A stretch of DNA of 64,000 nt. It comes from Chloranthus sessilifolius (taxonomy: Eukaryota > Streptophyta > Magnoliopsida > Chloranthales > Chloranthaceae). The stretch is from the NCBI GenBank assembly GCA_021018995.1, contig CM037593.1, positions 35,477,810 through 35,541,809 of the forward strand, given 5' to 3'. The notes under the pieces were generated by a model, which was given only the letters and a program-made list of their open reading frames with translations, was not told the origin of the DNA and did not search any database. Both the position numbers and the translations under genes were made by a program. Positions within the stretch are counted from its first letter, which is position 1; every line of letters starts with the position of its first letter. Of this stretch, positions 5,284 through 63,800 are shown in pieces.

Positions 5284-5297
5284 GACAAATTTTACAC

Positions 5298-5415
5298 TGG
5301 CGCAACTATTAGTTGCGCCAAGGTAAAATATGGGAGTTTAAAGCTGGCGCAACTATTAGTTGCGCTAGTTATAAATTCCAGTGTTTTTACACTGGCACAA
5401 CTAATACATGCGCCA
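5298..5415. repeat. Palindrome cluster 1 of element A (three copies)
   Basis: Three copies at 5298-5320, 5345-5367 and 5393-5415. The first is perfect: TGGCGCAACTA, one T, then TAGTTGCGCCA, so two 11-bp arms around a single base. The second ends GCGCTA and the third is TGGCACAACTA...ATGCGCCA. GGCAAAAA follows the third copy, as it does at other sites. Confidence 0.95.
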
Positions 5416-6947
5416 GGCAAAAACTGCCTCTCCAGAACAAAAAGCAGCAGCCACTAATGCCCGAAATGAGTCTCTTTTTTTGGTTTTTGTGGAAGCTAGG
5501 CTTCCGGGAATTGAGCTGTTTTCTTGATGATCGATTCTCTCCTCACCGACGCCTAAAGGATTGAGTCCGGTATAACTCGCTAGCGACTCCCTAAGGGTTT
5601 TAAGCTTTGTAGGAATGGGAACCCACCCGATATACCTCCGGCGCAAGTGCCTTCTCAGATACTAGATGAGCTGGGACTTTTCTAGATCATCACCACTAGG
5701 GGCTGCCGCCATACTATGACCCGGGTGTTTGTATGTGTGCCTAAACCAACCCTTTTGAAAAATCTACCCCGCAAAACAGATTAATTAAGCTCCCTAACTT
5801 AGTTCAATTTTAATTTTTCAAAACTTTTCTCTTTTTTTTTGGAAGTTTTCTTTAGTTCAAAGACCGAGGGTGATTATCCCGTGCCGCCACTACGGGCCGA
5901 CGTCCACTGTTAGGATATGATAAATAAAAAAACGGGGCCAGTCAAGCGACTAGGCGAGAAATATAAAATGCTGAAATTTAAAAAGTGCCAGTCAAGCGAC
6001 TAGGTAAAAAGTTGCTGAAATTTTAAAGCGGAAACGTAGGGGTGATTAAAAAATGGTGCCAGTCAAGTGATTAGGCAAAGATTGCAGAAATTTAAAGCGG
6101 AATCGTAGGGGTGAGTGACAAAAAAATAGCAAAAATAATAAAAAAAAAACAGCAATAAAATGTTAGAAAAATAAAAAAGGAAAGGCCTAGTTCAAGGGGA
6201 AGCTCTACTAGCAAATCCCCAGTAGAGTCGCCATCTGTGCAACCGTGGGATCCGTGACGGTCCCGTCGCGACGATGCGCTCTCTAATGAAAAATATAGAG
6301 TCGCCACCGGGAGCTTTCGGTGTCCCGGGATACCTAGTTCATTTTTATGAGCACCGAAGTGCTAAAAATATGACTCTAAATCCGGTCCACACCAAAGGCT
6401 CTTGGGTAGGGGCTTCGGTTATCGATCGGGAAGGTGTTAGGCACCCGATCAAGCCGCTTAACGCGGTCTCTACTAATGGCCTAAAATAAAATGATATAAA
6501 ATAGCTTCCTCTTGCCCAAAAGGACTTAGAATCCTATTTGTGCCCCTCCGTTCCTACAGAAAAATCGGCGGCGTAACGGCACAAATGAGAGGATGGAGGG
6601 AGCTAGAAAGAGATAAGAGAAGAAAGGGGAGAGCCGGAGCCCTCGGGCCCTTGTAGCACTGAAGAGGAGCCTTGCGTGGCTTGCTTTGATGAGCTTTCGA
6701 AGGCTTGAATGGTGGAGAAATGGGTTATAACCACTTAGGACTTAAAGCTAAGAGGTAGGGGATGGAGGCTAGGGGATCACACAAACCTATGCTAAGGGTT
6801 TTGGATGCAAGAACAAGCTTGAAAGGAGGTTTTGGAATTCTGGAATTTGGATGAAAATAGTGTACAAAAGGGAGGAAGAACTTCTCACTTTGAGCTCTTT
6901 CTCTCTTAAGCAAATTTCTCAACCTTTAAACCAAGGGGAGGGGGGCT

Positions 6948-6956
6948 CTATTTATA
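6948..6956 (-). promoter_or_regulatory. TATA box of left LTR of element A
   Basis: The minus strand reads CCTATAAATAGAGCCCCCC, a canonical plant TATA box. The matching position in the right LTR is 27391-27398 (TATAATAG). It lies on the gag-pol strand and downstream of the palindrome half-sites. Confidence 0.7.
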
Positions 6957-7238
6957 GGAAATGGGTGGGTTAGGGGGGCACTTAGATACTAATTGGGTTT
7001 ATCAATTAGGTAATCTTGCATCTAAGGATTCCTAGGGTTTTTGGGGCCTTGAAAGGTGTGGGAAGGTCCTCCAATGGTGGATGATGGGGTGAGGCCTTAA
7101 GCCACTAAAGGGGTTGCCAATAGGTGAGGAATGGGTGCAACAGGACTATCAAAACACACCCCAAAGGTTGAGGTGGTCAACAAGTCAAACCCCCAGCACG
7201 AATTTTAGGGAAAAACTGAACAGCTATTGTTCATATGC

Positions 7239-7345
7239 CTAGCGCAACTATAGGCAAATGTACAGTAAAACAGTGCTGCACAGTTCCCTGGAAGTTGCGC
7301 CAGGCAAAAATCTTGGGGGAAAATGGATAGTTGCCCCAGGCAAAA
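7239..7345. repeat. Degenerate half-sites of the element A palindrome
   Basis: TAGCGCAACTATAGGCA (about 7240), GAAGTTGCGCCAGGCAAAAA (7291-7310) and TAGTTGCCCCAGGCAAAAA (about 7328) are single arms of the 23-bp palindrome. They occupy the place of the four-copy cluster at 27680-27883 in the right LTR, so sites have been lost here. Confidence 0.8.
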
Positions 7346-7725
7346 ATCCTGAAATTCTGTCCGATTTGCAAATGGCCATAACTTTTGATGTACAACTCCG
7401 ATTGGGGTGATTCTTAGCTTGTTGGAAAGCTGGAGAAGTCCTCTTTCCAAAGGTATATGATTTGATATCAGTAAAAGATCTAAGGTAGTCCTAGTGCACC
7501 ACTCTTCATCCATTACCCGGGAAGGTTAGGTTTAGGGTTCGGAATGGGTTCTAAGGGTTGGGATTGGTTTGTAAAGGTTCGGGGTAGGTTCCTAAGGGGT
7601 CTAGGGTGATTCTTAAGGGTTTCGGGTGATTCTTAAAGGTTCCATTCATACCATCAAAAGCTTAGAATTACACCTCTCTTAAAAGGTGTTTCTATCGGGC
7701 CTTGGGCCAAATTTGGGTGTCTACA

Positions 7726-7738
7726 GGTCCCCAAGTGC
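7726..7738 (-). promoter_or_regulatory. Candidate polypurine tract of element A
   Basis: The minus strand reads CACTTGGGGACC immediately before the LTR start TGTAGACACCC. The position directly 5' of the 3' LTR and the G-rich content fit a plus-strand primer site; it is short and imperfect. Confidence 0.5.
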
Positions 7739-9208: not shown

Positions 9209-9327
9209 TAGCACAACTATTAGTTGCGCCATGCAAAAAGGGGGCTAAACTTTGTTTGGCGCAACTATTAGTTGCGCCAGGCGAAAAGGTGCTCCAAAAT
9301 TGCCTAGCGCAACTAATAGCCGCGCCA
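9209..9327. repeat. Palindrome cluster 2 of element A, upstream of the PMD ORF
   Basis: Three copies at 9209-9231 (TAGCACAACTA...), 9257-9279 (perfect 11+1+11) and 9305-9327 (TAGCGCAACTA...CGCGCCA). A weak TATA-like AATTTAAAC follows at about 9343-9351, preceded by a G run and CAAT. The cluster lies 1.1 kb upstream of the PMD start codon, with a probable 5'-leader intron between. Confidence 0.95.
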
Positions 9328-10456: not shown

Positions 10457-12909
10457 ATGTCTGGTGATGATGAGCACATTCCTGAGGGGAGCCAGGAGGA
10501 CGGGCCCAAGGTAGTATATTGTCCTCGAGGGGAGAAGTTCCTTTGCTTAGAGCGGAAAGCAGGCTCTTGGCTCGAAATGCAGGGCGAGGCTGCCCGAGTC
10601 GACCTCCTACACCAACAGTATATCCACCTTTCTAATTTTGGTATAGCAGGCAGGGTAAGAGACAGGTTCAATTTCTTTCTTTTATGTAGCTTCGCTTTGT
10701 TTCCTCAACCTAATGCGCTATTCTTTGGACACAGGACCTTCCCTCTATTGTATTCGGAGGGGATGGCTCGATTTTCATGATTTCTACCTCTATGTCCCCC
10801 CTGTGGTGAAAATCTTGCTGGCGCAGGTAGGCTTTGGGGAGTTTTTGTCCTGCGTATCTGAAGGCATTGATCGAGCAGTTCCATCTCGAGATGATGACCT
10901 TTCATATGTCGTACGCTGAGCTGGCCTTGACGCCCGTTGATTGGGCCATGATTACTGGTATCCAGGTGGGGGGCATACCGATAGCTGGTCTCACAGTGCC
11001 GAGCAAGGAGGACATTATCCGGATGATAGGGGTGTACCCCCCTCATGGGCAGATACATGGTATCGAGGTCAAGATGACCTGGCTAACCACGCTTTCCACG
11101 GCCGATGAGTTGGTGGATCTAGGGCAGCCTGATAGGGTGCTTTACATTATGCCCGAGCGGGCGATCTTCTTGGCTCACATCATTCTCCTGCTTCTGTTGG
11201 GTAAGACCCTTTTTACCAATGCGAGCGGTGGCCGAGTCAGCCTAACGTTGCTGAGCGTCATGGACAACTGGGGCGACGCCCATAGGTATCACTAGGGCGG
11301 GGCCGGATATGCTTGGTTGATGTATGGCATAGCTCGGGCCACCATTGGGGAAGCTAAATCCATCGTTGGCTTTTGGGCGGCCCTAGAGGTGATCCCGTAC
11401 CTTTTGCTCTTATCAGTTCTACTTGGATGGTCTTAGTATGTTACTGACTTGTTCTCTTACGCACTATTTTTCTTAGGTATGGGGGTATCACCACTTTCCA
11501 CCTGGGCGCCCGCTCCTCTACTCGGATGCATTTACCTATCCTCTTCTTAGCAATTGGAACCATGCCCGGCGCCGTGATGTGGGCTTGAAACACCTGGAGA
11601 TGGGCTTGAGGTCCCAACTTGACCTGATGATCCCTAAGCAGGTAAAGCCCTTTTCAACTTTGTTTACTTTAGCTCAGAGATTCTCTCTAATTTGCTATGC
11701 TGCTTGTCTGATTGACTGGTTATCTCTTAACTTGGACAGATGCTCCATGATCCGTACCTCACTTCTGCTTTCTGGGATCGGGCAGCTGTAGGTCCATCGC
11801 GCCTTCTCAACAACCGCCGCGTTGTTTCTTTTACAGGGCATGGGTGAGGGTTTACTATTTAGGGGAGCGGGTGGTGCACCAGTATCAGGGTTACCATGCC
11901 ATACCCAAGGATCCTCCCGTCGATGTCATGGGTCCTGCAGGTAGTGTTGAGGAGCTCACAGTGGCCTTCCATAATAACGGGCTTCCCATCAATGCCCTTC
12001 TCGTACTCAAAGGTTATCACATATGGTACAAGTACCTGCCGTATCGGTTCATCTTGCCACGCTTTGTCCCTAGCGCTAATTTCCTTACATTTGGTGGCCC
12101 ACTCAGGCAGGTAATTCTCCTTTCCTTTTTCAGATTTGTCTCCTTTTGTTTTAATTTGGCCTTTGTCCTTTTTGAGAAAATTTTTGTCTTATTTGTAGTT
12201 GGCTCAAGGGGATGGTTCAGATAATGAAGGCGGGGTAGCGGCGGGCACCGCTGGTTCCTCTGGGGCGGGTCCTTCGGGTGAGGACCCCTCTGGTGCGGGT
12301 CCGTCAGGAGAGGGTTCTTTCGGTGTGGGTCCGTCAGGTATTTCTCAAGCTGGTACTCCAGGGGTGATCCGACCGTGGTCTATGGGACCTTCCGACGCCT
12401 TGATGGTAGCTTTCTCTCGGACCTGTGTGCCGACATGGATAGGCAGGTGCGTATCTCCACGAAAGCGACCCATGCCCCTCCTCCTAAGGTGATCCCAGGG
12501 GTAGGCCCTCTGATGACCCATCTCTTTCTTATTTCAGCCTCCTTTTGCACATGTTTTATGCTCCCCCTAATTGCTGACATTGTACCTCTCTGAATGTAGG
12601 ACTTTGATTCGGCTATGGAGTATGCGGCGTACCATCGTAACATTATGGAGCTTCGGGATGTGGAGACAATGAGTATTCTGCTGCTCTACTTTTTCTGTGG
12701 GTTCCACCATTTATTTTTAATTTTTTTTGTTGCCCCCTGATCAGCACTGATCTCTTATTTTGGCTATGACTTGCAGCGTGCGCGTGCTAAGGAGTCCTGA
12801 TCTTTGCTTAGCAGGATTTCTCAGGCCTGGTCCCGGGTGGGGGATATGCAGACTTACCAGGGCTCCTCTCATCGTCGGAAGAAATCAAAGGGCGTGGACA
12901 GGGAATAGG
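10457..12909 (+). pseudogene. Antisense accessory ORF 1 of element A: plant mobile domain (PMD, aminotransferase-like) protein, decayed
   Basis: Exonic blocks in order are MSGDDEHIPEGSQEDG (ATG at 10457), GWLDFHDFYLY (about 10765), LKALIEQFHLEMMTFHMSYAE and LTPVDWAMITGI (10860-10970), GKTLFTNASGGRVSL (11200) and GGAGYAWLMYGIAR (11297-11338). Then FWAALE joins VWGYHHFPPGRP across an intron with GT...AG ends at 11389-11476. A further intron is likely at 11642-11739, and later blocks are VYYLGERVVHQYQGYHAI (11848) and GYHIWYKYLPYRFILPRF. The tail holds GPSG repeats (12240-12350) and AMEYAAYHRNIMELRD (12614). PMD proteins include Arabidopsis MAIN/MAIL1, which affect transposon silencing, and many transposon-borne copies. 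A TAG replaces the Trp before GGAGYAW at 11293, and frameshifts exist near 10830 and 11830. The gene lies opposite to gag-pol. Confidence 0.8.
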
Positions 12910-13329
12910 CCTTAGTTTCTGCATTTGAACAATTCAGACATTTTAGTACTTTTTGAAACAACTTTTATTTGGGATTTTTACAAAGCTTTGTAAGAGATAT
13001 TTGTGGCATTGGTTGGATGATTTTATGCTTGGACATGTCCAATGCTTTTCTTTGGTTGCAATGTTATCTCTTTCTTGCATATATCCGATTGCTCGCAGGA
13101 AGATCTTTGATGATCACTCGTAAAAGCGGCCCTTGATGCCGCATGCCTTGGTGCAGGCGCCTCCTGCACAAGGGTCAAACCAATGTTAATGTTAGACGCC
13201 CCTTTGATTCTTGGGTGCAATTGTTTTCATAAAATAGGTAAATCAGGTTAGTGGTCTAAGGGGGCCAGCAGAGGTCCACAAACATCCACAAAATGCTTAG
13301 AAAAATGGCCTGGGGGGAGTGTTTTGTGT
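12910..13329. other. Intergenic spacer between the two antisense ORFs
   Basis: This 420-bp stretch lies between the stop of the PMD ORF and the third palindrome cluster. It probably contains the PMD 3' untranslated region. No gene or repeat is recognised in it. Confidence 0.6.
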
Positions 13330-13441
13330 TGGCGAATAGTTGCGCCAGGCAAAAATATGAGGGAGATTTATTGGCGCAACTAATAGTTGCACTAGGCAAA
13401 AATCTGGGATAAATGCACTGGCGCAACTAATAGTTGTGCTA
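13330..13441. repeat. Palindrome cluster 3 of element A, upstream of the DUF7745 ORF
   Basis: Three copies: a shortened one at 13330-13347 (TGGCG, AATAGTTGCGCCA), 13372-13394 (TGGCGCAACTAATAG then TTGCACTA) and 13419-13441 (ending TTGTGCTA). The last ends 28 bp before a TATA box at 13469. Two of the three are followed by GGCAAAAA. Confidence 0.95.
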
Positions 13442-13474: not shown

Positions 13475-13610
13475 CCCAAGCCAGTCCAAAAACTTTCTCT
13501 TTTCTGTTTGACTTGGCCCTTTTGACTGATTTTTTTTGTTCTCATTTTCCTAGGGGCAGGTCTATTAACATACATCGAATTTTATATTCTTCAAAGATCC
13601 TTGTACGTTT

Positions 13611-15109
13611 ATGGACCTGCTTTCCAACCCTCCCTTATATGGAGGGCCCAGGACCAATTTACCCATCTCTTTGGGCATGGGACCTAAATTTCTAACAAGT
13701 TGGGTTGGGAGCTTGAATGAGGGTGAGCTCGCTGACTTGGAGCGCCTTGGGCTATCTCGCCTTCCATGCTTTCTTGAGGTTCCCCCACGGTGGGACCTTC
13801 TTCATGCCCCCACATCCTTGTGGAATCCAAATGGTCATGTGTTCCAATTTGGGAATCGGGAGATGACTCCTACTCTTGAGAAATTGTCCAACTTGTCTAG
13901 TTTGAGGCTTCACAGGGGCCTTGCCAGAATTGTACCGAAGCCGGGCTATGGCAGAACCGTTCACCTTATCCTGGGTTTGAAGAAACATGAGTATGAGAAA
14001 AGTCTCATTGGGGGGCCCACTAGGTGTTCGATGAAATCCTGAAATAACTTTTTGGTGACGAAAGTCTCCAAAAATTGCCGACTCGGAACATCTTCAACGT
14101 GAGAGCATTCTCTCTTGGCCTTATCTCAGAAATCCTTTTCTTTATCGGGGGAGAGAGCTTCTCCTTGGCAATTTGTGATATTTTGACCGAGTTGGAGGCG
14201 GGCCGATCTATGATGCTTTTGGTGCTCGTCGAACTTTTTCGGTGCCTTGATGCGTTTTCCCTTGGGAAGACCAAGGATCTTAGGGGTTGCCCACTTTTGC
14301 TTCAGGTTTGGCTGGGAGAGCATCTTGCCATTTTGGGACCAGTGCCCCGCTTTTATCTTGCTCGAGGAGAGGTGGTTCGATGCTTTTTGGGCAGGTGCCA
14401 CATGATTCCCCAGGGAGATTTGTCAGAATTGAAGCTTTGGCTGATTGGCGTGGATCTTATATGGAGACTTCCTTGGCTAGAATAGACCTTCCATGTGATT
14501 CATTCCATAGACCATGAGGGCATCACCCTTATGGGGTTGACCGGCAGCACCTTCTACTTCCCATTTTGGGTGTTGCGTTAGTTCGACTACACTCAGTAGG
14601 TGCTCTGTGAGGCAAAACCCCCTTTGTGTTACTTGATCTTTTCTAGAGGGTCCTCTGGTGACATAGATCGGATCGTCGCTCTTTGGGAGACACGTCAGTT
14701 GACGCTGATGTACGATATGGAACAGGGAGATTGGGTTCGGTCTTCTCCTGAGTACGAGGCCTGGCTATTGACTGAGCAGCCTATTGCTGATTTTCTAGAT
14801 TCAGCAGAGAGTATTGACACTGGAGGCCCCTGGCCAAAGAAAGAGACGGTACTCTGAGCCCGCATTGAGCTGTTAGTGGATGAGAAGAGGGTCCTGCACG
14901 AGCTTTTAGTGCAGAAAAAAGTTAGAGCAGAGATAGCAGGGAGCGAGGTTCTTCGTCTGAAAGGATCCTTGAGTGTAGCCCTTGGAGCCGCTGATACCTC
15001 TCGAAAGAGGTATAAGAGCTTGCATGGTCGTTGGTTGACCGAGCGGAATGTCCGGGAAGATGATTTTCGTGCTAAGATTAGTGCCTTGAAGCACGAGCTG
15101 GGCCGCTGA
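13611..15109 (+). pseudogene. Antisense accessory ORF 2 of element A: DUF7745-like protein, decayed
   Basis: From ATG 13611 the frame gives MDLLSNPPLYGGP, then LWNPNGHVFQFGNREMTPTL (13830-13890), which matches the WDPxxRxFxFxxxxMxPTxEE pattern I associate with DUF7745. After a stop at 14040 the next block (14080-14485) gives FSLAICDILTELEAG, LVELFRCLDAF, CPLLLQVWLGEHLAILGPVP and LIWRLPWLE. Then come GITLMGLTGSTFYFPFWVLR (14518-14577) and SSPEYEAWLLTEQP (14742). The C-terminus (14876-15109) is charged, heptad-like coiled coil (EKRVLHELLVQKKVRAEI) ending ISALKHELGR. DUF7745 genes commonly accompany Ty3/gypsy elements and their function is unknown. At least four stops or shifts interrupt it. The domain call is from memory of the pattern. 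Confidence 0.7.
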
Positions 15110-25738: not shown

Positions 25739-25858
25739 TGGTGCAACTATTAGTGGCGCCAGAGCAAAGTTCCAGTTTTTAAAGTTGGCGCAACTATTAG
25801 TAGTTGTGCCAGGGCATTTCTGGGAAATTTTGTATTGGTGCAACTAATACTTGCGCCA
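25739..25858. repeat. Palindrome cluster 4 of element A (right LTR, inner end)
   Basis: Copies at 25739-25761 (TGGTGCAACTA...GGCGCCA), 25786-25811 (with a 3-bp TAG duplication in the centre) and 25836-25858. It corresponds position by position to cluster 1 in the left LTR. Confidence 0.95.
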
Positions 25859-27390
25859 GAGTAAAATGGATTGCCGGTTTTTTGTGATAGCAGCAGCCTG
25901 AGTTCGAAATGGGTCTCCAAACTGGTTTTTTATAGAAGTTGGGCTTTTGGGAACTGACTGTTTTTATATGATCGATCATCTCCTTTTCGAATCCTAAAGG
26001 TTTGAGTTTGGTATAACTCGCTAGCGCGCTCCCCAAGGGTTTTAAGCTTTGCAATGGGAACTCGCTTGATATACCTCCGGCGCAAGCGCCTTCTCAGATA
26101 CTAGGTGGGCTGAGACTTTTCTGGATCATCACCACTAGGGGCTGCCGCCATACTATGACCTGGGTGATTGTATGAGTGCCTAAACCCAACCCTTTGAAAA
26201 TCTATCCCGTAAAACAAGTTAAATTAAGCTCCCTATTCTTGGTTCAATTTTAAATTTTTTTTCAAAGCCCTTTTTTTTTATGGAAGTTTTCTTTAGTTCA
26301 AAGACCAGGGGTGATGACCCCGTGCCGCCACTACAGGTCGGCGTCCACTGACGAAATATGTTTGCACAAGTAGACCCGCAAATCGGCTAAGGCACTTTAA
26401 ATGGCAGAAAATTAAAAGAATTAAAAGACAATGCTTAAGTAGGCCCTCCAATCGGCTAAGGCACCTAAAATGATGGAAAAGTAAAGAAAATTAAAAGACA
26501 CTATGCAGGTAGGCCCGCCGATCGGCTAAGGCACATAAATGATGGAAAAGTAGGGGTGAGTAGAATAAAAAATAATACACAAAAATAGCAAAATTTTTAG
26601 TAAAATCAACAATAAATAGCCAAATTTCAAGGAGAAGCTCTACAATCTATCCCCAGCAGAGTCGCCATCTGTGCAACCGTGGGATTCGTGACAATTCGGT
26701 CGCAGTGATGTGCTCTCTAACAAAAATATAGAGTCGCCACCCGGAGCTTTTGGTGTCCTGAGAAACCTAGTTCATTTTAATGAGCATAGAAGTGCTAAAA
26801 ATATGATTCTGAATCCGATCCACACCAAAGGTTCTTGGGTAGGGGCTTCGGTTATCGATCGGGAAGGTGTTAGGCACTCGATCAACCCGCTTAATGCGGT
26901 GTCTATTTTTAGCCAAAACAAAAATAATGTAAAAGAAAAGAAAATGCCTTCCTCTTACCCAAATGGGTCTTAAATCCTATTTGTGCCCCTCCGTTCCTAC
27001 CAAAAATTCGACGGCGTAACGGCACAAATGGGAGAATGGAAGAAGAACTAAAAGTGATAGGATAAGAAAGGGGAGAGCCGGAGCCCTCGGGCCCTTATTG
27101 CACCGTTGAGGAGCCTTACGTTGGCTTACTTTGATGAGCTTTTGAAGACTTGTATGGTGGAAATAGGGGTTCTAACCTCTAAGGCTTGCTAGCTAAGAGG
27201 TAGAAAGGGAAGGTAAATGGGTAGCATATACCTAAACTAAGGGATCTAAGGTAAGAAATATCACTCCAAGGAGGTTTTGAAATTCTGGATTTTATATGAG
27301 AATGGTGCATCAAAGGGAGAAAGATCTCACTTTAAGCTCTTTCTCTCTTAGGTAAAATTTCTCAACCTCTAATCCAAGGGGAGGGGGGCT

Positions 27391-27398
27391 CTATTATA
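27391..27398 (-). promoter_or_regulatory. TATA box of right LTR of element A
   Basis: Minus strand CCTATAATAGAGCCCCCC, aligned with the perfect TATAAATAG at 6948-6956. It would drive the genomic RNA; the palindrome cluster at 27680-27883 is 280-490 bp upstream. Confidence 0.65.
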
Positions 27399-27679
27399 GG
27401 AAAAGCGTAGATTAGGAGGCTACTTAGATGCTAATTGGGTTTAGCAATTAGGTAATCTCACATCTAAGGTTTTCTAAGATTTTAAGAGCTTCGAAAGGTG
27501 TGAAGGTGGTTCCAATGGTGGATGATAGGGTGGGGCCTTAAGTCACTTAAAGGGTTGCAAATAGGGTGCAAAGGGGTGCAACAAAACTATTAAAACACAC
27601 CCCAAAGACCGAGGTGGTCAATAAGTCAAACCCCAGACACAAAATTTGAGGTAAAACCAGAGGTCACTGTGCATAAGCT

Positions 27680-27883
27680 TGGCGCAACTATTAGTTGTGC
27701 CAGGCATATGTACAGTGAAATAGTGTAGCACAGTAGCCTAGAAGTTGGCTTCCCGAGGTGGGGTCCACCTCAATGCTGGCGCAACTATTAGTTGCGCCAG
27801 GCTTAAATCTAGGGAAAGTGGCTTGGCGCAACTAATAGTTGTGCCAGGCTAAAATATAATTGGTGCAACTATTAGTTACGCCA
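27680..27883. repeat. Palindrome cluster 5 of element A (U3 of right LTR, four copies)
   Basis: Copies at 27680-27702, 27777-27799 (perfect), 27824-27846 and 27861-27883. Differences are mostly C to T or G to A within CpG, as expected from methylated-cytosine decay. A G run and CCAATTG follow on the plus strand, recalling cluster 2. Confidence 0.95.
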
Positions 27884-28283
27884 AATCTCTAGGGGGGGGC
27901 CAATTGAAAATATGCTTTTGCCCTCTGGGTTCGAACTGCCATATCTTTGCGTACATAGCTCCGATTGGGGCTATTCTTGGATCTTTGGAAAGATGGAGAC
28001 CTCTAATTTTTAATGGTATAAGATTCGATCATAGTAGAAGGCTATAGCTAGTCCCGGTGTACCACTCATCCATGGCTTGGAAAGATTAGGTTCACGTCCG
28101 GAATGGGTTTTAAGGGTTCAGGTGGTTCCTAAGGGATCTAAGGTGATTCCTGAGGTTTTGGAAGGGTTCCTAAGGGATCTAAGGTGATTCCTAAGGGTTT
28201 CATACATGCCATCAAAAGCTCAGAGATGTGTTTTTCCCGAAATATGTTTCGATCGGGCCTTGGGCCAAATTTGGGTCTCTACA

Positions 28284-30988: not shown

Positions 30989-30996
30989 CTTTTATA
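30989..30996 (-). promoter_or_regulatory. TATA box of LTR B, duplication copy 1
   Basis: Minus strand AACTATAAAAGATT, a canonical TATAAAAG. Word arrays and hairpins lie upstream (31040-31593). Confidence 0.6.
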
Positions 30997-31455
30997 GTTT
31001 TTTCTCCAATTAAGCTCTCTGTTTTAGGCGTTTAACTGGATTGCATGCCAGTTTCTCGGTGCTTAATCGCTTTAAGTCGGTCATCGACTCAGTGAGCGAC
31101 CGACTGACTTTCTCAGTGAGTTTTCTAGTTCTAATCATGTTAGAATTAATTGTGCGCCCAGTGTGGAGTGCACAATCTGATTAAGTGTCTCATTTGAAGC
31201 ACTTGATCGAGGAAGCTTAGGGGTCAAGGACGGTAAGACTAGGTCGGGCGTAGGCCAATTATACACCAGTGGTGGGGCGCTCAATCTGATCGTGCGTCTC
31301 GTGTGAGGTGCATGATCGAATCTCGAAGTGGTATGGGAAAAGAAGTCTAGTCTGAAAGGGGACTGATTGCACACTTATGGTTTAGCGTGCGATCGAATTA
31401 CGCACGTAGTTTTAGGCACGAAATTCAGGGTTGTCCTGGTCCGGGTTAGGTCTGA

Positions 31456-31740: not shown

Positions 31741-32198
31741 GTTTTTCTCCAATTAAGCGCCATGTTTCAGGCGTTTAACTGGATTGCGCGCTAGTTTCTC
31801 GGTGCTTAATCGCTTTAAGTCGGTCACCGACTCAGTGAGCCACCGGCTGACTTTCTCAGCGAGTTTTTTAGTTCTAATCACGTTAGAACTAATTGTGCGC
31901 CTAGTGTTGAGTGCATAATCTGATTAAGCGTCTCATTTGAAGCGTTTGGTTGAGGAAGCTTAGGGGTCAAGGACGGTAAGACTAGGTCAAGCGTAGGCCA
32001 ATTGCACACCAGTGGTGGGGCGCTCAATCTGATCGCGCGTCTCGTGTGAGGCGCATGATCGAGACTCGAAGTGGTCTGGGAAAGGAAATCTAGTCTGAAA
32101 GGGGACTGATTGCACCCTTATGATTTAGCGTGCGATCGAATTACGTGCATAGTATTAGGCACGTAATTCAAGGTTGTCCTGGTCCAGGTCGGGTTTGA

Positions 32199-34756: not shown

Positions 34757-35110
34757 CAAGAATTGCGCACCTGATTTAGGTCGCTCAATATGATTGCGCA
34801 CCTATTTCCGGGTATGCGATCATAGGTTCGAAGGGCTGTTTACGCATGTCGGAGTGTACGTGTGATTGAGTTATGCGCTTTAATCCTCTCGCGTGATTGA
34901 GGAATCACCAGGTCACTGTGCGGGCGACCTTTCGTATTGCGCGGTGTGAAGTGGTCATTTAATAGGCTTGTGCGGTTTATAGTGAGCGCGTGATTGAAGC
35001 GTCGTGCGGGCGATAGTTTATTTGTGCACTCGATTCGGAGCGCGGGTTTTGGATTATGCGGGTCATGTGATGCGTGTGACCGAGTTAAGCGCACGTGTCT
35101 AGGCGCATGA
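34757..35110. repeat. GCGC/TGATTGA word array 1 in front of a TATA-like site
   Basis: Many copies of words such as ATTGCGCACCTGATT, TATGCGATCATAG, GCGTGATTGAGG and GCGCATGATTAAG. The same vocabulary fills the LTR at 31130-31430. TATAAG follows at 35127-35132. Confidence 0.8.
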
Positions 35111-35126
35111 TTAAGTCCGTACTCAA

Positions 35127-37009: not shown

Positions 37010-37390
37010 CATATTGTGTTTTTGGGGAATTGCACGCTTCACTATGGGCGCATAAACTAATTGCACGCCGGAATGGAAGCGCACGTTTCGGAGGGTCAGA
37101 AGGTCATTAAGCGCCAATGTCCGATCATTTAACCAAGTTAAATGCACGGTATTGAGCACAGGATTAGGGTGGTGGCCGGTCACTGTGAAGGTGACTGCTG
37201 GCATTCGCACGCACCGATTAGGGCGCTTGATGTGATTACGCGGCTGGTAGGCAGCGTGCAACTAGGCGGTCGGGTTAGTTTGAGCGAGCGATGATTAATT
37301 TACGCTCTCAAAACTGATTGTTTGATCTGAATTATGTGCGGAGATTGTGGTGCATGATTGGGTTGAGTGCGTGAGTTCACGCGTGCGATT
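37010..37390. repeat. GCGC/TGATTGA word array 2, upstream of the PMD ORF of element B
   Basis: Words such as ATTGCACGCTTCAC, GGGCGCATAAACTAATTGC, GGCGCTTGATGTGATTACGC and GTGCATGATTGGG. It ends about 12 bp before the TATA box. Confidence 0.8.
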
Positions 37391-37401
37391 TGGGTACGTT
37401 C

Positions 37402-41455: not shown

Positions 41456-41469
41456 AGCGTAGGGAGTAG

Positions 41470-41601
41470 GTGTGTGTGTGTGTGTGTGTGTGTTTATTTT
41501 AGCCATTATGTGTGCATTGTATATATATAGGGGGGATGCCCCCCAGTGATAAGTGTAAAAAAAGAAATTTTTGATATATATATATATATATATATATATA
41601 T
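41470..41601. repeat. (TG)n and (TA)n microsatellites with a G6/C6 hairpin between
   Basis: (TG)n at 41470-41493, GGGGGGATGCCCCCC at 41530-41544 and (TA)n at 41573-41601, directly downstream of the PMD gene. Element C lacks the hairpin. Confidence 0.95.
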
Positions 41602-42216
41602 GGAGATTCTTTGGTTTAGATGTACCTGATTAGCTCCTTTCCTTTTGATTACCTCTTGCATTTGTCTTTTTAGTTTCTTTAGCGCCATCGACCGTTGTTG
41701 GGACTTGGATGCTTCCTGAGCTGGCCCGGTGATGGTTGAAGGTTGCTTTGTATCTACGTATGTAAAGGTAACGCTATCAATAATTTTTGTTCTCCCCCTT
41801 GCTAGTTGTCAAGGGGGTGAGTGTCTCAGACCGGGGCTTGGTAGTAAAAGTGGATATTTTCTCTGTTTTTATTATTTTATTTTATTTTATTTAGTTATTT
41901 ATTTATTTATTTTTATTATTATTTTATTTCTGAAATAAAAATAATGCAACAGGGAAAGCAAATAACTAAGATAAAAATAAATAAAATAAAAAAATGCCTC
42001 AGTGTAGAAGCGTGGTAGGATTGGTAGTATAGTATCTTCTCTAGCATTCTCCAGATAGTGATTTCGTTATTTTGCATCTTCCTTGTGGATGAGTCGACAC
42101 TTCAAAGGTGATTCTCCTTTTGATAAAAAAATGCTTTAGTGTCTAGATGCAATGGAGCTTTCTTGGGTTTTAGATGAGCACTTTGGGCCTATGGGTCTAT
42201 AAGAAGTCATGGGTAG
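41602..42216. other. 3' spacer of element B, homologous to element C inverted
   Basis: No gene. GCTGGCCCGGTGATGGTTGA, CCTTGCTAGTTGTCAAGGGG and GGGTCTATAAGAAGTCATGGG (first base dropped here: GGTCTATAAGAAGTCATGGG) recur, reverse-complemented, at 56600-57070 in C. Homology stops at about 42216 where the Athila ORF of D begins. Confidence 0.75.
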
Positions 42217-43087
42217 GCATCTACTATGGGGACTCTTATTTCTTGTTGGTGCCCACTCACATACATATTCTTTCTCAAAATGGAGTCAAAGAAGTGCATG
42301 CTGGGGTGCAAATCTCTTCTCATTATTGAGTCCCCAGACCCCACAATGCCTTGAGTGAGGTGCCTGGCCATTGCTTTGAAAGAGACATTCTCAGGTGCAG
42401 CCAGGCCATAGACTGAATCAAAAATAGAAGGGACCCCCAATGCTATCCCTATATCTCTATAGTCCACCACCATCTCTACATCATCAATAAAAATTACAAG
42501 GCAGGGCTCAAGTAAATCTGGCTTGGTTTGTTTTCTAAGATTCTGATACCACAACTTAATCCACCTTGGGTAAGATTTTTCATTCAGTGGGCTCAACATG
42601 GGTGTCAGGCCTGCCTTCACCAAATAATTCAAAGTACCTGACACTCCTCTACCTTAGAGAAATAGGGGGTATCAACGATAGTGCTTGGGATCAAACCTAA
42701 TGCATCCACAAATTCATTAGGTGTGGATCTGAGAAAAGGGACTTCAGGCTCTAATTCAGGGTTATGCTCAGCCTTAGAAATTTCAGGCAAAAAGTTAGGT
42801 TGTGTCTCAGGGGCCTCCTCAATAATGTCTTCACTGATTTGGGCCTTCTTAGATTTCTTGGCCTTCTTTGATTTCACAGTTTTCTCAGCTTGGTCCATGA
42901 CCAGCTTCCTTTTTACTGGTGGGGTATCCTTAGGCTTTGTGAGTTGCCTAGTGGATTTCCTAGTGGCTTTGGTGGTGGATTTGGAAGGTGCTTTGAAAAG
43001 GGTGGCCAAGGTGTCTTCTTGATCATACATTGTATACTCAAACAATTGCAATTCACTTCTAATCACCACACAGACCTTTGTTATCAA
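42217..43087 (-). pseudogene. Element D downstream ORF (Athila ORF2 position), one frameshift, truncated
   Basis: The N-terminal part (43087-42629) is Lys/Ser/Thr-rich with nuclear-localisation-like KRKLVMDQAEKTVKSKKAKK, then acidic EEAPETQPNFLPE and ALGLIPSTIVDTPYFSKVEE. A single frameshift near 42635 leads to SGTLNYLVKAGLTPMLSPLN, WIKLWYQNLRKQTKPDLLEP, VDYRDIGIALGVPSIFDSVY and MHFFDSILRKNMYVSGHQQE. This resembles proteins annotated 'putative plant transposon protein' found after integrase in Athila-like elements; I could not fix the family. It has no obvious signal peptide or membrane segment, so an envelope role is not supported. The frame ends at the junction with element B. Confidence 0.55.
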
Positions 43088-44244
43088 TCAAATTAACCAC
43101 ACCAATTTGCAAATGTAATGCCAAAAGCACAAAGTGGGACAGAAGAGAGGCTTACCAGTAGAAACCTAGGGTTTCACAGATCTTGAAATGCACAACACCA
43201 AACCAAATCAGACAAAGTGCAAAGTGTAGCTTTTGATGAATTGAAGCAATGGGGAAAATAGCCAGGAACTTGTTGTAACAGCCAGTGAGGTAGGGAGAGA
43301 AAAAGAAAAATGGAAAAATCGCCAGAGAAGACTTAAAGCACAAAGAGAAGCTGTCGAATGGCAAAAATGGAGTTGTCGTTAGGTTTAAAGCAATGGGAAA
43401 TGACTTTCGACGGGATTGGGACAAGGTGTCGACAGGTTGATGCAACCTGTCGAAGAGTAAAAGGCCACTGATCCGCGCGAGAGATGCATGCATTCCTGTC
43501 GAAGAGTTCAAGAAGACAGAAATAATCATTTCGAGAGGTTCACAGAACATCTCCATAGGTTCTTTGAAATCAATATACAATCCTCTTGACAGGTTCTAGG
43601 CTCCAGAAAAGTTTCTTCGAGGGGTTCACAGAACCTCTCGATAGGTACCTTGAACCTGTCGAGAATTCAACCAAAAATCTTCAAAACCTATCGAATACTC
43701 CTAGATCCTATTGAGAACCATTTTTACACCTTTAAAACCTGTCGAGAATTAGTTCACACCACTCGACAGCTTCTAGATCTTGTCGAAAAGCAAACTGAGA
43801 ACTCTCAAAACCTGTACAGATGTTCATAGAACCTATCGACAGGTTATACTCAGTTTAAAGAGGCTTGTAATCAATTCCTAGTTCATGTCCCAACAGATTT
43901 GACACTCCAACTCAGGTCACTTCACCAATTTGACTCATTATCCTACCTGGGTACAGACATACATGGCAAAAAAAATTATGTACAATGACAAACGAAAATG
44001 AAACAAAAGAAACAGAAATAACTAAACACATGAGTTTTATACGTAGTATACATTGTGGAAACTCAGCCATGTTATGAAGGTTCATGATAGTGAATGGTCA
44101 GTACAGGCCCCACCACATTTTCAATAACAAGCTTGAGCCTTTGCCCATTCACTTTCGTGATCCTTCCATCTTTTGGATCCTTGATTTCCACAGCTCCAGA
44201 TGGGGATACATGCTCAACTGTGTAAGGTCCCTCCCATCTGGATC
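43088..44244 (-). other. Spacer of element D between integrase and ORF2, with word array
   Basis: No protein is recognised. It contains TCGA-type words at 43380-43860 and probably the promoter or intron upstream of ORF2. A fragment at 44090-44220 may be the ragged end of pol (the plus strand reads GGTCCCTCCCATCTGGATCT, complement of a WRSRWEGP-like integrase tail). Confidence 0.6.
43380..43860. repeat. TCGACAGG/TCGAGAGG word array in front of ORF2 of element D
   Basis: About fifteen copies of words such as GTGTCGACAGGTTG, CCTGTCGAAGAG, ACCTCTCGATAGGT and CCTGTCGAGAATT. The full form AACCTGTCGACAGGTT is a perfect palindrome. The same words fill the LTR at 51290-51990. Confidence 0.92.
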
Positions 44245-48791: not shown

Positions 48792-48794
48792 ACA

Positions 48795-51014: not shown

Positions 51015-51289
51015 CCTTCTCCCTTTGTCTCAGATCCATTTCAGCCAATCAGAGCCCAAGAGAATAATTCTATTATTTTGGGCTGCTAATGTGGCTGATT
51101 TCTCTTCTAGAAGCTCTTCTCTCATTGGTCCACAATTGGCAAATACACGTGAAGCAGTTAGGATTTCCAATCATGCACAATTGAAGGCTAAAAATACCCC
51201 CAGGGGTCACTGACATGTTTTGGGATGTGTGCATAGGCTTCTAAAATTGGTATCTACTGAAGAAACATGCTGAGAAGTTGCCAGTTGGA

Positions 51290-51990
51290 GTGTCGAGAGG
51301 TTCAAGGATCCTCTTGACAGGTTCTGAATTTTCATTGTGTTCACATCGACAAGTTGTAGTGGTTGTCGACAACTTTATAGACTTCTCGAGAGGTTTGAAG
51401 TCTTCTCGACAGGATGAGTGGCACTCGTCGATAGGATTAGAGTAGCTCTCGATATATTCAACTTCACTAGTTGACAGGATTGGAGAGTATTCTCACCCTC
51501 TATCCAGTTTCGCATTCGTCCTCTCGACAGGTTATAGAAAATCCTGTCGACATCTTTGTGCAATTCTTGTTTGAGCTTTCGAGAAGTTTCCTGAACCTCG
51601 CGAGGATGAGCGTCATTTAGCTTCAGGTGAGTTGTCGACAGGTTGTCTTGGACTGCTCGACAAGTTCAGCTGAACCTCTCGAGATGTACTTGGAACCTCT
51701 CGACTTATCCTGCACCTTTAGGTAAGGTGTCGATAGGATCTTTTTGCTGAACTTCCAACCTCTCGACAGGATCTATCATCCTCTCAATCTCTTTACAGTT
51801 TCTCCTCAGAACCTCTCGACATGTTATAATTAGCCTTCAGAACTTCTCGACAGGTGCTGGGGAGCTCTCGACAGCTTCATGGAACCGCTCGACGCTTATT
51901 GTCACCTCTCGATACTTGGCTTTCGAGCTTTAGAACCTTTCGACAGCTAGATTTAACCTCTCGATAGGTTCTGCCTTATGCTTCCACAGC
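51290..51990. repeat. TCGACAGG/TCGAGAGG word array in LTR D
   Basis: About thirty words such as CCTCTTGACAGGTTC, CTCTCGACAGGTTATAG, TTGTCGACAGGTTG and AACCTCTCGACAGGAT at irregular spacing of 15-40 bp, many with perfect GTCGAC or CTCGAG-like centres. Confidence 0.94.
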
Positions 51991-59581: not shown

Positions 59582-60109
59582 CAAGTGTAGTGATCCATGT
59601 GCTTTAGATTGCAGCCAATCAGAGGAGAGATTTTTATGCTTGAACCCTATTTTAGCCTTTCAACCAATCAGAGAGCAGAGATGGATCAGGTTTTGTTGTG
59701 CTCAGCTGAAGTAGTTTACATTCCCGCCACAATTTAGTTTATTCCCGTATGCAGCCTTCTCTTGCATGCTTGGAGTTCCCAAGTTGCCCCTGCCAATCAA
59801 TAATATTTTACCCAAAAATATAACTCCAGTTGTAGCCTTTATCTTATATTTTACATTTCCTAAAATTGCCCCTGCTATTATTGCTAAAACTCCAAAGTAT
59901 CTCTGCTGCAAATATTCCCAAAACAGCCCTCACAATTCACATTTACTGAAATCCGGGCTGCTATAGACTTCCATTTGATAGGACAATTGTGGACCTGATG
60001 CTAGTTTGAGAGGATAGATAGGAATGGGAGGTTAGGAACTGCTGAGATGAATTTCTTGAAAGGTTGGGATCTGCTGGTTCGATGGTTGGAGTGTGGAAGG
60101 CTAGAGGAT

Positions 60110-61030
60110 AACAGCTTCAGGTGTGCTGTCGAGAGGTTGGGAGGATCAAATCGAGAGGATGTGGGCTGGTGCAATGGAGCTGTCGACAGGTTCTGTAGGT
60201 GTAGGGAAGCTGTCATGAGGATAGAAGGTGCATGCAAATAAGTTCTCGAGAGGTTTTGGAGCTGGGCTGAAGATCTGCTCAATAGGTATATGAAGGCTAC
60301 TGCATGCAAGGTGTCGAGGGGATTGAGGAGCTACATTTCAAGAGGTTTAATGGGAGGTTGCAAGCTGCTATTGGTTGACAGGTACAATGAAGATTTATGA
60401 GCTGCATATTGATAGGTTCGACACTATTTCAAGTCGATAGAATGGCTTGTTGTTGTCGACAAGTTCAAGGGGCTACAACTTATAAGTCGATAGGTTCAAA
60501 GGTGAATGGGAGCTGTAACACCTCGAGAGGATGCATGGGAGGATGGAGCACAAGGCCTCGACAGGTTTAAATCTTGGTAGTTGTTGCTCTTTGAGAGGTT
60601 GAAGATTCAGCTGGTCGACAGGTTTAGAAGTAGCACCTGCAAAGGTGTCGACAGGTAGGTTGTACTGCACTAAAAAAGTTGCTTGACAGGTTTGGTAGAG
60701 CTGCAGGTCGACAGGTTCTCACCCCAAATGGTCGACAGGTTGGCTGCAAAATTGAAGTGCATTTCAAGAGGTATAAAGCTTGGAGGCTTGATCTGCTCAG
60801 GGGATTAGGAGGTGGCTTGCTTAGCTGGTCGACAGGTTGAGAAGCAGCACCTGTCGACAGGTTCAAGGTTGCATGGTAGCTGAAGCTCTCGAGATGATGC
60901 ATGGGAGGATTGACTGCACAACAACTTTTGAAGGTATTTATAGTCGAGAGGTTCAAGTGCATTGTGGTTCTGCAATTCGAGAGGATGGCTAAATTGCTTT
61001 GGACTACTCGACAGAAAGGCTTCAAATTCT
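60110..61030. repeat. TCGACAGG/TCGAGAGG word array in LTR E
   Basis: About thirty words such as GTCGAGAGGTTGGGAG, CTGTCGACAGGTTC, GGTCGACAGGTTCTC and ATTCGAGAGGATGG. Vocabulary is that of LTR D and the array is at the matching place in the LTR. Confidence 0.94.
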
Positions 61031-61156
61031 GCTGCTTTTAGTGACTGCTCTTTAGATTTTCAGCAATTACAACACTTTGAGAGGGAATAAATGCATCCAA
61101 AGCTCAGGCTTTTATCAACAGCAGCTGCCTGCATACATCTTCAGATCCGATTGGGA

Positions 61157-61183
<27 letters not shown>
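61157..61183. repeat. (AT)n microsatellite
   Basis: Pure AT tract just beyond the word array of LTR E. Confidence 0.96.
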
Positions 61184-61190
<7 letters not shown>

Positions 61191-63022
61191 ATAATTTTGC
61201 AGCTGCTAGCTTCACATCTTCACGTATTGCAGCAACATTTAGCATGTTTGAAGTGCTGGTTTCTCAGCAGATTTCTAAGGGGCCAAGCACACTCAACTGC
61301 TCCAGTGATGTAAACCATCATCTCATGATTGCATAGCTTGTGTGCTCAAGACTAAAGCTTATGCTGAGCTTCCCAAGTGAACACCTAGCGACTCTGCTGA
61401 ACCATGTTGGTTTACCTCAGGTGCCTAAGTGTTGATGTTTATTTAAGTGATGTGATGGTAAAATCAGAATACAAAGGTGGAGTAAAATGGTTATAGAATT
61501 AGCAACCTAAAGTACACACAGTCTACAAGATACTAGGCTATTGTAGCAAGTTTTGATAAGTAAGAGTTTGTCCCACAGAGAAATTGATCTAGAACCTAAA
61601 ATAGGCTATAATAGTAGGCCTCCAGATCTAGCAATCATAAAGAAAGAGAGTTGGGTGTTAAAACTATACTAAATTACCTACTAAAAAGAAAAGAAATAAA
61701 GTACAGTTCTATCCTAAGAAAGGGTTATGGAGAAGGTGGTGATGGTGTGTTAAAATAAAGATAAAAGGATGGGCAGTAAGTAGTTTAGGCAAAGGTTAAT
61801 TCAGTTATGTACTCAGATTTAGCGTTGTTTCTGCAACAAATCCATACTGAAGTGCTATAAAAAAACTCAGCAAGGAAGAAGAATCCAACTTAACCCATGC
61901 CATTTAAACTGCTCTTAAGGTTATAATCTGTCCACTTAAATGGTCATAGACTATCCAATAGAGTTTGTCAAATCCTATTGATTAAATCAGAAAAGCTAAC
62001 CTAATCCAAAGGAGTGGACTGATCTTAAGGCTATAATCTATCCACTTTAATGGTCACAGGCTATCCAATAGATTTCCTTCAACCAATGAATTATATCATG
62101 CCATGAATACCATTACAGACACTATATTTTCTAGGCTATAAGCACCCCAGATCTGTTACAAATCTGGCAGACATTTATAGGAGCAAATAGACCTTGAAAA
62201 CTTGGTGGGAACCACAAGGTATCTCAGGCTGAATGAGGATTTAGATTCAGCTGATCCTTGCTACAAAAGGTCTACAATGACTCAGCTCACAAGTCTGCAA
62301 TCACTACAGAGAAGCCAGATCTAACATCTGATAGTGGTTAAGTAAAATAGAAGGGAGGCTGTTCGTACAGAACCTCTCACTAGGCTATAAGCTCAAGTGC
62401 AGAGGAGAAGAATCCTTCTCAGATCTGTGACCAAGACCTACCCTAGGGCTATAGTCTGTCCATTCAAATGGTCACTGGCTATCCACAGAGGCTGCCTTAC
62501 CAACAGATGATGAGATAAAACATGTAAACTGCTGCTACCACCATGGTCCCATGACTACAAGATCAAGCTTCCATGGGCCTTTCAATAAGCTCAAATCCTA
62601 AATGCATGTTATAGCCCGAATAAAACTACGGGAAAATAGGAAAATAACAGATTAAATGAATATTTAAAGCACAAATTCCATTGATCTAAATTGCCTATAA
62701 TGAAATTTCTCAAGGCATCAGCCTTATGCACAATAGCTCTTCACAAAATCCCAATGTTTAAATGACCTATTATAAAACTACATGAAACTACACCTAATTG
62801 CTTACTAAATATTTAGCCAGTAAGTGTTGGGCTAAAAGTGAAGAAAAAATGGAAAAGGAAGTGATCAAACCCTAACCTTAACCCTAATCTGCTTGAGCTC
62901 TTAGCCGACAAAGGTTGAAGGAGAGATTGATAAATTCTAAGTTATAAGCATAGCTTGTATACTCAGTCCTACTACCTTGGCTAAGAGAAGAGTAAACCCT
63001 AATTTTTCTAGCAGATGTGACA

Positions 63023-63030
63023 CTATTATA
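63023..63030 (-). promoter_or_regulatory. TATA-like box of LTR F
   Basis: Minus strand GAGCTATAATAGTGTC. The CGCGAG array begins about 40 bp upstream. Confidence 0.5.
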
Positions 63031-63064
63031 GCTCTTAGATGTCTTAAGATGTGTGCCTCAGGAT

Positions 63065-63800
63065 TCAGGCCTCGAGATGTGTGCCCTAGACATGGGAAAA
63101 TTCCCAAAAGGTCCTTGAGTTAAGAGAATTGGAGAGCCCGAGCTTCACGAGGCTGCCTTCTACAAATTATTTCTGTCGCACAGATGATTTATGCTCTTTA
63201 GTTCCTTCGTGCAGCTTGCAGAGTCCTCGCGAGGTAGGAATTAGCTTAGAAGGTTTGTTCACTCACGCAGGTGGACTTTGGATGATCGCGCAACTGATCT
63301 GGCTTTGAATGCACTCGTGCGAAAGAGTTTACAGCACTTGGCTTGCTTGTACAGTAGAGCATCAAAATCTCCTGTCGCGAGGTGCTTGCACAGATGCCTT
63401 TACATCTCGCTTGGTACAGGGTTAAACTTTTAGGCGCGCGAGAGTTGCGCAAGAGAACTTTTGGGCGTCTCTCTCCTCCATAGCCACGCGAGAGATTCCC
63501 GGGGTTGTCACTGCTATTCGCGCAAATTGGTCTCCCGAGGTGGTGCGCGTGGTTGCTTTAAGGCTTGATCCTCATGAGAACTTCACGAGCTATATTTATG
63601 AAGGCTTAGTGCGTGATTACTTTGCAAGTTTCTTTACATGTGGATTGCAGCTGAAGTACCCGACTACTGCACGAGAGGCTGCTTTGTGATATCCTCTTCA
63701 CTAAGCTGCTCGACTGCTTTACGAGCTCTAGTATGCTGCATGTCTTAGCTATGCGAGGAAGCTTTGCTAGTGAATTTGACCAGCGCGAGGCAGTATCTCA
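63065..63800. repeat. CGCGAG word array in LTR F
   Basis: Words such as CTCGCGAGGTAGG, GATCGCGCAACTG, CTGTCGCGAGGTGC, GCGCGCGAGAGTTGCGCAAG, CCACGCGAGAGATTCC and CAGCGCGAGGCAG, about fifteen to twenty copies, at the place where D and E carry TCGACAGG words. Confidence 0.85.

What the first reader, a model, noticed from the sequence alone, without database searches (positions are those of the whole stretch)
5284..63800. Family-specific palindromic word arrays sit upstream of TATA boxes of LTRs and also of accessory ORFs
Seen: in element A the 23-bp palindrome lies upstream of the LTR TATA (27391), of the DUF7745 TATA (13469, 28 bp away) and of the PMD ORF. In B the GCGC/TGATTGA words lie upstream of both LTR TATA boxes (30989, 31733) and just before the PMD TATA (37402). 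In D the TCGACAGG words lie upstream of the LTR TATA-like site (51006) and of ORF2. E and F repeat the LTR arrangement. Words differ between families but are shared between promoters of one element. Known: VANC proteins of VANDAL elements bind short family-specific motifs clustered in their own element and counter silencing; PMD proteins MAIN/MAIL1 affect transposon silencing. Inference: the accessory proteins, or a host factor, recognise these words and co-regulate the element. One A cluster near the LTR inner end does not fit the upstream rule.
Basis: partly seen in the sequence, partly recalled or inferred. Interest (0 to 1): 0.9.

Follow-up and report, generated by a model that had tools for sequence, protein, structure and literature searches.

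The report
Self-marking word arrays in plant retrotransposons
Large plant retrotransposons carry family-specific mirror-image DNA words in front of their main promoter and their extra genes, and in a related family the word differs at every site examined, which suggests that each family carries its own recognition code to control itself.

Summary
The core observation is confirmed and holds beyond the window. Element A's 23-bp dyad forms clusters, mostly at 47-48 bp steps, and occurs 8,967 times exactly in this 2.17-Gb genome, against 0 for the reversed pattern. In 20 fetched regions all 26 clusters sit at four places: LTR U3, end of the 5' leader, before the PMD gene, before a second accessory gene. 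Models trained on the B or D LTR alone find arrays before accessory ORFs of the same element. Within family A words are 88-90% identical, in-array spacers 57-71%. New: two related families keep array place and step but have different dyads; in A'' the word differs from A at all three arrays examined. D words are phased to 10.5 bp. Best reading: operator arrays for a dimeric factor that co-evolves with each family, probably the element's own PMD-type protein, working like VANC of VANDAL transposons. Binding is untested; a host factor is not excluded. Corrections: 'DUF7745' unsupported; F weak; one solo LTR has its array downstream of its TATA.

The parts
27680..27883 (.). A array in U3 of the 5' LTR (4 dyads TGGCGCAACTANTAGTTGCGCCA), 281 bp upstream of the minus-strand TATA
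7240..7338 (.). A array in U3 of the other LTR, broken half-sites only
25739..25858 (.). A array at the end of the 5' leader, outside the LTR
5298..5415 (.). Second copy of the leader array, following the left LTR, a second PBS and leader (tandem or recombinant structure)
9209..9327 (.). A array before the antisense PMD gene (recognised PMD domain starts 1.5 kb further on)
13325..13441 (.). A array before the second antisense accessory ORF; TATATA at 13469
26670..28283 (-). A 5' LTR (TGTAGACACC...TTGCACA); PBS at 26650-26667
6236..7725 (-). A 3' LTR; a further PBS at 6216-6233
10834..12221 (+). A PMD gene pieces (PF10536 1.7e-7 on 10834-11292, 31.2 bits, below cut-off 34.9)
13572..15106 (+). 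A second accessory ORF pieces (PF10536 9.9e-6 on 14051-14482, below cut-off); no DUF7745 match
31028..31405 (.). B array, LTR module 1; TATA 30989 (minus strand)
31771..32148 (.). B array, LTR module 2 of the 744-bp duplication; TATA 31733 (minus strand)
34763..35115 (.). B array before a possible first accessory promoter; weak TATA-like site near 35126
37048..37401 (.). B array before the PMD gene; TATA 37402 on the plus strand
38326..39049 (+). B PMD gene pieces (PF10536 4.2e-11 on 38326-38610 and 5.4e-7 on 38756-39049)
51264..51970 (.). D array in U3: 25 words (9 bits or more) AACCTSTCGASAGGTT, phased to 10.5 bp; TATA-like 51006
43370..43845 (.). D array before ORF2: 13 words (9 bits or more), phased to 10.5 bp, no TATA found
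42210..43087 (-). D ORF2 pieces (only a weak Transposase_32 match, E 0.0076, far below cut-off)
60050..60953 (.). E LTR array, 18 words of the D type, not helically phased
63140..63810 (.). F LTR array, weak CCTCGCGAGG-like words
2815..3280 (.).

Best explanation
Each array is a row of operators for a sequence-specific DNA-binding factor that acts as a dimer (dyad words), placed in the LTR U3, in front of the accessory genes and, in A, at the leader end. In A, B and relatives the factor is most likely an accessory protein of the element itself (the PMD protein, or the second ORF product). It would bind family-specific words at all these sites of its own element and keep them active or unsilenced, so that protein and words co-evolve and families keep separate codes. 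Shown: the arrays, their places, word conservation over spacers, and word differences between families that run through all arrays examined. Inferred: dimer binding, element origin of the factor, and the activating or anti-silencing outcome.
For: 26 of 26 A clusters, in the 14 of 20 regions that held A words, fall at four fixed places. A copy without accessory genes has no words between pol and 3' LTR, even at 8 mismatches. Words are more conserved than in-array spacers in all four array types (0.877-0.902 against 0.572-0.714; 28 of 32 arrays aligned). Different A clusters in the window share words (0.86) but not flanks (0.37). Held-out models find accessory arrays of the same element in B and D. 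A'' has one different dyad in U3, before PMD and before ORF2 (10 words, 0-5 mismatches of 24), with 47-48 bp steps, no A words at 4 or fewer mismatches, and accessory proteins at 51-60% identity to A against 60-77% for two A copies. A' has another dyad at the same U3 place. U3 spacers stay alike between families (0.63-0.68 against shuffled means 0.53-0.54; 7, 3 and 2 spacers), so words probably changed in place. D words are phased at 10.5 bp in both arrays, also without the short steps, and close neighbours are no more alike than other pairs. Precedents: VANC proteins bind short family-specific motif arrays (PMC5735166, passages); MAIN/MAIL1-dependent genes share a DNA motif (PMC7156037, passages); 'PMD protein-DNA motif modules' (Nature Plants 2025, title only).
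Against: No binding, expression or methylation data. The PMD fold could not be modelled. The solo LTR has a comparable array downstream of TATA and no accessory gene in view. E words are not phased (p 0.57) and B words not at 10.5 bp. D's ORF2 is not shown to be PMD-like. The leader end is not known to be a promoter. Sequence just downstream of the U3 arrays is nearly as conserved (0.829) as the words (0.882), though less so elsewhere (0.49-0.79). Between families words differ about as much (identity 0.56-0.68) as spacers. A host factor would also give shared words at all arrays of one element. The concerted difference rests on one A'' copy; its leader could not be examined, and the A' leader was not found.
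Confidence: 0.55

Rival explanations
1. The words are enhancers for host transcription factors; each family has captured a different host factor and uses it at all its arrays.
For: Equally predicts shared words at LTR and accessory genes. The solo LTR array lacks any accessory gene in view. Dense U3 enhancer repeats are common in LTRs (general knowledge).
Against: The A word is long (32 bits over 23 bp), more than a typical host site (general knowledge). Related families keep array place and step but differ in the dyad at all three arrays examined; with a host factor each switch needs a new host partner for every array at once.
Confidence: 0.27
2. The arrays are tandem repeats that expand by slippage; conserved words and even spacing are by-products without function.
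For: Arrays have 47-48, 31/109 and 20-21 bp steps; TRF calls some of them tandem repeats.
Against: Words outlast their spacers in copies and between clusters. A words recur at four fixed places only, in the regions examined. D neighbours at about 21 bp are no more alike than distant words, 0.49 against 0.50 in the LTR array.
Confidence: 0.1
3. The words are marks used by the host to silence the element (CG-methylation or PMD/MAIN-type pathways recognise them).
For: Arrays taken together are CpG-rich (observed/expected 0.98 against 0.52 in the rest), although 3 of 14 are not (A U3 right 0.52, A leader right 0.54, E 0.45). CpG positions of 14 A words have changed to TG or CA in 9 of 28 cases against 12 of 252 changes elsewhere, as expected if dead copies were methylated. 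MAIN/MAIL1 act in silencing (PMC5418596, passages).
Against: An element should lose words that silence it; instead they are kept in related copies. Methylation decay is expected in any silenced plant TE.
Confidence: 0.08

Closest known systems
VANC anti-silencing proteins and motif arrays of VANDAL MULEs (PMC5735166, PMC10398659; passages read)
   Same: Short family-specific motifs in dense arrays in the element's own noncoding DNA; motifs and element diverge rapidly together.
   Different: DNA transposons with VANC proteins; VANC21 motif YAGTATTAY arrayed in one orientation, VANC6 motifs AGTTGTCC/AC. Here LTR retrotransposons, dyad words, fixed or helical spacing; neither motif occurs in the window's arrays; no binding shown.
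Plant mobile domain proteins MAIN/MAIL1 and the DOWN motif (PMC7156037, PMC9899485; passages read); PMD protein-DNA motif modules (Nature Plants 2025, title only)
   Same: PMD proteins linked to a promoter DNA motif; A and B encode PMD-matching proteins.
   Different: Host genes in Arabidopsis; the MORC1 DOWN instance CATGCAGTTT does not occur in the window; here words are long dyads inside PMD-carrying retrotransposons.
Retand/Tat antisense ORFs with TRP28 domain and family-specific tandem repeats between pol and 3' LTR (PMC11963269, passages read)
   Different: In the passages read the repeats' function is left open; here the repeats are dyad words shared with U3 and leader, and accessory genes are of PMD type.

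Membership tests
Tat/Ogre LTR retrotransposon (element A) | Additional RNase H between RH and integrase (Tat clade, Ogre and Retand) | tested here: met
   RT_RNaseH at 129-233 and RVT_3 at 291-358 of the piece 18074-19153, upstream of integrase pieces; definition from PMC6317226
Tat/Ogre LTR retrotransposon (element A) | PBS complementary to tRNA-Arg | tested here: met
   TGGCGACTCTGCTGGGGA at 26650-26667 and a copy at 6216-6233; the tRNA-Arg end is recalled, the Ogre rule is from PMC9289625
Tat/Ogre LTR retrotransposon (element A) | PMD extra ORF (57% of Ogre, PMC6317226) | tested here: met
   PF10536 1.7e-7, below the curated cut-off
VANC/VANDAL anti-silencing module | Family-specific short motifs in dense arrays in the element's noncoding DNA | tested here: met
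VANC/VANDAL anti-silencing module | Element is a VANDAL MULE encoding a VANC protein | tested here: not met
   A has LTRs and gag/RNase H domains; D pol resembles A; B has an LTR and a PMD gene; no transposase-type match above cut-off among the ORF pieces scanned
VANC/VANDAL anti-silencing module | Known VANC motifs present | tested here: not met
   0 in the window's arrays for YAGTATTAY and AGTTGT[CA]C; fewer than 1 expected by chance
VANC/VANDAL anti-silencing module | Protein binds the motifs and removes silent marks | not testable with these tools
   needs DAP-seq, EMSA and methylomes
PMD protein-DNA motif module | PMD protein encoded | tested here: met
   B above cut-off, 43 bits against 34.9; A below it
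PMD protein-DNA motif module | The MORC1-type DOWN motif | tested here: not met
   CATGCAGTTT absent from the window
PMD protein-DNA motif module | PMD protein recognises the motif | not testable with these tools
   no binding data; fold prediction pLDDT 36.8

The most novel reading that the evidence does not exclude
PMD-carrying Ogre-type LTR retrotransposons have evolved a self-recognition code independent of VANC: an element-encoded dimeric regulator reads a family-specific dyad at the LTR and accessory genes of its own element, and new families arise by concerted change of the dyad (both arms, all arrays) while array place and step stay fixed.
Probability: 0.45. Interest if true: 0.9.

Novelty: new variant of a known kind. 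Interest (0 to 1): 0.78.

Why it matters
What the extra ORFs of Ogre/Tat retrotransposons do is left open in the passages read (PMC6317226, PMC11963269). Arrays with a family code that changes in register give it a direct test: thousands of words per genome, several families, each with its own candidate reader. It would extend sequence-specific anti-silencing from DNA transposons to giant LTR retrotransposons and could explain how a PMD domain came to work with DNA motifs in host genes.

Tried and rejected
Protein relatives of the A PMD piece and D ORF2 piece: none at E 0.01 or better. PDB sequence search of an A and a B PMD piece: 0 and 3 matches, the best at E 0.23. Structure prediction: pLDDT 36.8, not used further. 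Exact A core in viral contigs: 0. 10.5-bp phasing in E and B: not found. B pre-PMD array modelled alone: not above shuffles. A'' leader and A' leader: stretches fetched, no words and no leader or LTR homology there, so untested. Homology of the two B accessory 5' leaders: suggestive in the alignment, blastn best E only 0.019, not claimed. Genome counts for A' and A'' words and a PF10536 survey were asked for and never answered; counts for B and D words were not asked for. RNA-hairpin or packaging role: not pursued, because arrays also precede antisense genes and the D dyad has no loop (inference).

Limits of counts: the 20 regions were chosen from the listed places of exact A words, all on contig C1, so the 26 clusters are not a random sample; 6 of the 20 regions hold no A word. 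In one search blast matches under 60 bases were dropped and words with up to 5 mismatches of 22 kept. One search used 14 of the 16 full A words (13325 and 25786 left out as too degenerate) and no left-LTR half-sites. One search aligned 9 of 12 U3 arrays, 7 of 8 leader arrays, 6 of 6 pre-PMD and 6 of 6 pre-ORF2. Words are recognised by their match to the dyad, which inflates their apparent conservation somewhat. D and E word counts use a threshold of 9 bits. Jitter tests keep word order and are not a full model. The TATA matrix is recalled, not from a database.


Full report
What is in the window. The window lies in a 2.17-Gb assembly (G000, contig C10), evidently a plant, and is made of nested LTR retrotransposons. 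Element A is a Tat/Ogre-type element on the minus strand: LTRs 26670-28283 and 6236-7725, tRNA-Arg-type PBS, gag and pol with two RNase H domains, and two antisense accessory genes on the plus strand, PMD (10.8-12.2 kb) and a second ORF (13.6-15.1 kb). B is a truncated PMD element with a 3' LTR that reaches to about 32.75 kb; its other end was not fixed. D is a further gypsy-type element on the minus strand (pol resembles A) with ORF2 at 42.2-43.1 kb. E is an LTR related in part to D, and F in part to E.

The words are real and are dyads. The A word TGGCGCAACTANTAGTTGCGCCA occurs as 16 full copies in five clusters. Most centre distances are 47-48 bp (others 37, 50, 97), and each of 20 simulated windows gives 0-2 matches. 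A symmetric motif search without seeds gives gcGCttaATc.gATtaaGCgc in the B LTR (log-likelihood 60.0, six shuffles 26.5-32.0), AACCTSTCGASAGGTT-like words in D and E (171.1 and 139.9, shuffles 28.8-47.9), and a weaker CCTCGCGAGG in F (57.8, shuffles 28.8-42.9). In an unbiased scan of 318 windows these arrays are among the 45 best for one or both word widths, next to AT repeats, poly-A tracts and other repeats (24.0-24.6, 29.6-30.2, 32.2-32.6 kb).

Words are shared within an element. Held-out tests: the model trained on one B LTR module finds five further sites of 15 bits or more outside the LTR, all in B, in two arrays. The D LTR model finds 10 words at 11.8 bits or more before ORF2. The B array at 34763-35115 is new.

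Words are kept while spacers drift. Between different A clusters words are 0.86 identical and flanks 0.37 (14 of 16 words). Across genomic copies at corresponding places, words are 0.877-0.902 identical, in-array spacers 0.572-0.714, and sequence just downstream 0.485-0.829. The second-ORF TATA is kept as TTATAT in 6 of 6 aligned copies.

The genome repeats the arrangement. The exact A word occurs 8,967 times; the reversed control 0. In 20 regions of 10 kb (14 with A words), 84 words form 26 clusters: 10 in U3, 6 at the leader end, 5 before PMD, 5 before the second ORF, none elsewhere. 'Before PMD' means in front of the conserved segment that leads to the PMD domain, which in the window starts 1.5 kb further on; the other three measured arrays lie 172-346 bp from their ORF. 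One copy with target duplication CCATT (L005/L006) has no detectable accessory genes and no words between pol and 3' LTR, yet keeps U3 and leader arrays; its LTRs are 92.7% identical.

Word switching in register. In L019/L020 an LTR homologous to A (68-81% in parts) has no A words. At the same U3 place, with steps of 47-49 bp, it has CTTGCGTATAT-AAA-ATATACGCAAG (family A'). In L016/L026 a third family, A'', has TGGGCGTATATA-T-TATATACGCCCA in U3 (9615, 9715, 9762, 9809; one step of 100 as in A, then 47), before PMD (2186, 2234) and before the second ORF (6148, 6196, 6243, 6291), with 0-5 mismatches of 24, no A words at 4 or fewer mismatches, and accessory proteins 51-60% identical to A. The A' and A'' words are related (0.68 identical). 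U3 spacers stay alike between families (0.63-0.68 against shuffled means of 0.53-0.54, largest 0.57-0.61), which suggests change in place rather than replacement of the array; words themselves are 0.56-0.68 identical between families. Both arms of a dyad differ together. A, A' and A'' share GCG at the same distance from the centre (GCG-N13-CGC), read from the words. A B-related LTR in L019 has a variant word with the B steps of 110 and 31 bp upstream of a TATA-like site, although only about 0.6 kb of the LTR aligns.

Helical phasing. D words are spaced at multiples of 10.5 bp in both arrays: cosine mean 0.78 (24 spacings) and 0.75 (12 spacings), reached by 0 of 5000 jittered sets each. With only spacings over 25 bp kept, p is 0.0001 and 0.008. 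Close neighbours are no more alike than other pairs, which argues against recent slippage. E shows no phasing (p 0.57), B none at 10.5 bp, and A has a fixed 47-48 bp step. The solo LTR array is phased near 10.3 bp.

Mechanism. Dyads, fixed or helical spacing, conservation over spacers, confinement to a few places and word differences that run through all arrays of an element point to a dimeric DNA-binding factor that co-evolves with the family. The element's accessory PMD-type protein is the most economical reader, as VANC is for VANDAL (PMC5735166), and PMD proteins are linked to promoter motifs in Arabidopsis (PMC7156037, PMC9899485; a Nature Plants 2025 title seen only in a reference list). 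This last step is inference. A host factor remains possible. The CpG positions of A words have changed to TG or CA in 9 of 28 cases, against 12 of 252 changes elsewhere (Fisher p 3.6e-5), as expected if silent copies are methylated at the words.

Literature seen. Passages of PMC5735166, PMC10398659, PMC7156037, PMC9899485, PMC5418596, PMC6317226, PMC9289625 and PMC11963269; a reference-list entry in PMC13409832. Searches answered. None of these listings showed, by title or start of abstract, dyad arrays shared between LTR and accessory genes of PMD retrotransposons. Subscription papers are mostly not held and the Nature Plants paper could not be read, so priority is not claimed.

Noticed in passing
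2228-4817: Solo LTR with TSD CTAGG and 18 TCGATTAATCGA words about 370 bp downstream of its TATA; an 88% copy with the same words in L014. A word array without an accessory gene in view.
   Followed up: partly
5293-6235: The left A LTR is followed by a second PBS and leader, so element A is a tandem or recombinant structure whose homology ends at the dyad array.
   Followed up: partly
30877-32363: 744-bp tandem duplication inside the B LTR gives two TATA-plus-array modules, 91.5% identical.
   Followed up: no
40149-42215 and 56603-58603: 78% identical inverted segments: apparently the end of the B accessory gene and that of a second element with pol on the plus strand.
   Followed up: no
L005/L006: A-family copy without detectable accessory genes but with TSD and 92.7% identical LTRs: possibly a non-autonomous form that moved.
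   Followed up: partly
L019:7091-7700: B-related LTR with a variant dyad word (GYGCAYAATTYGATTATGCRC) at the B step lengths, in sequence that aligns to B only in patches.
   Followed up: partly
1802-2182: Minus-strand ORF fragment that resembles a CACTA-type transposase by eye; not tested.
   Followed up: no
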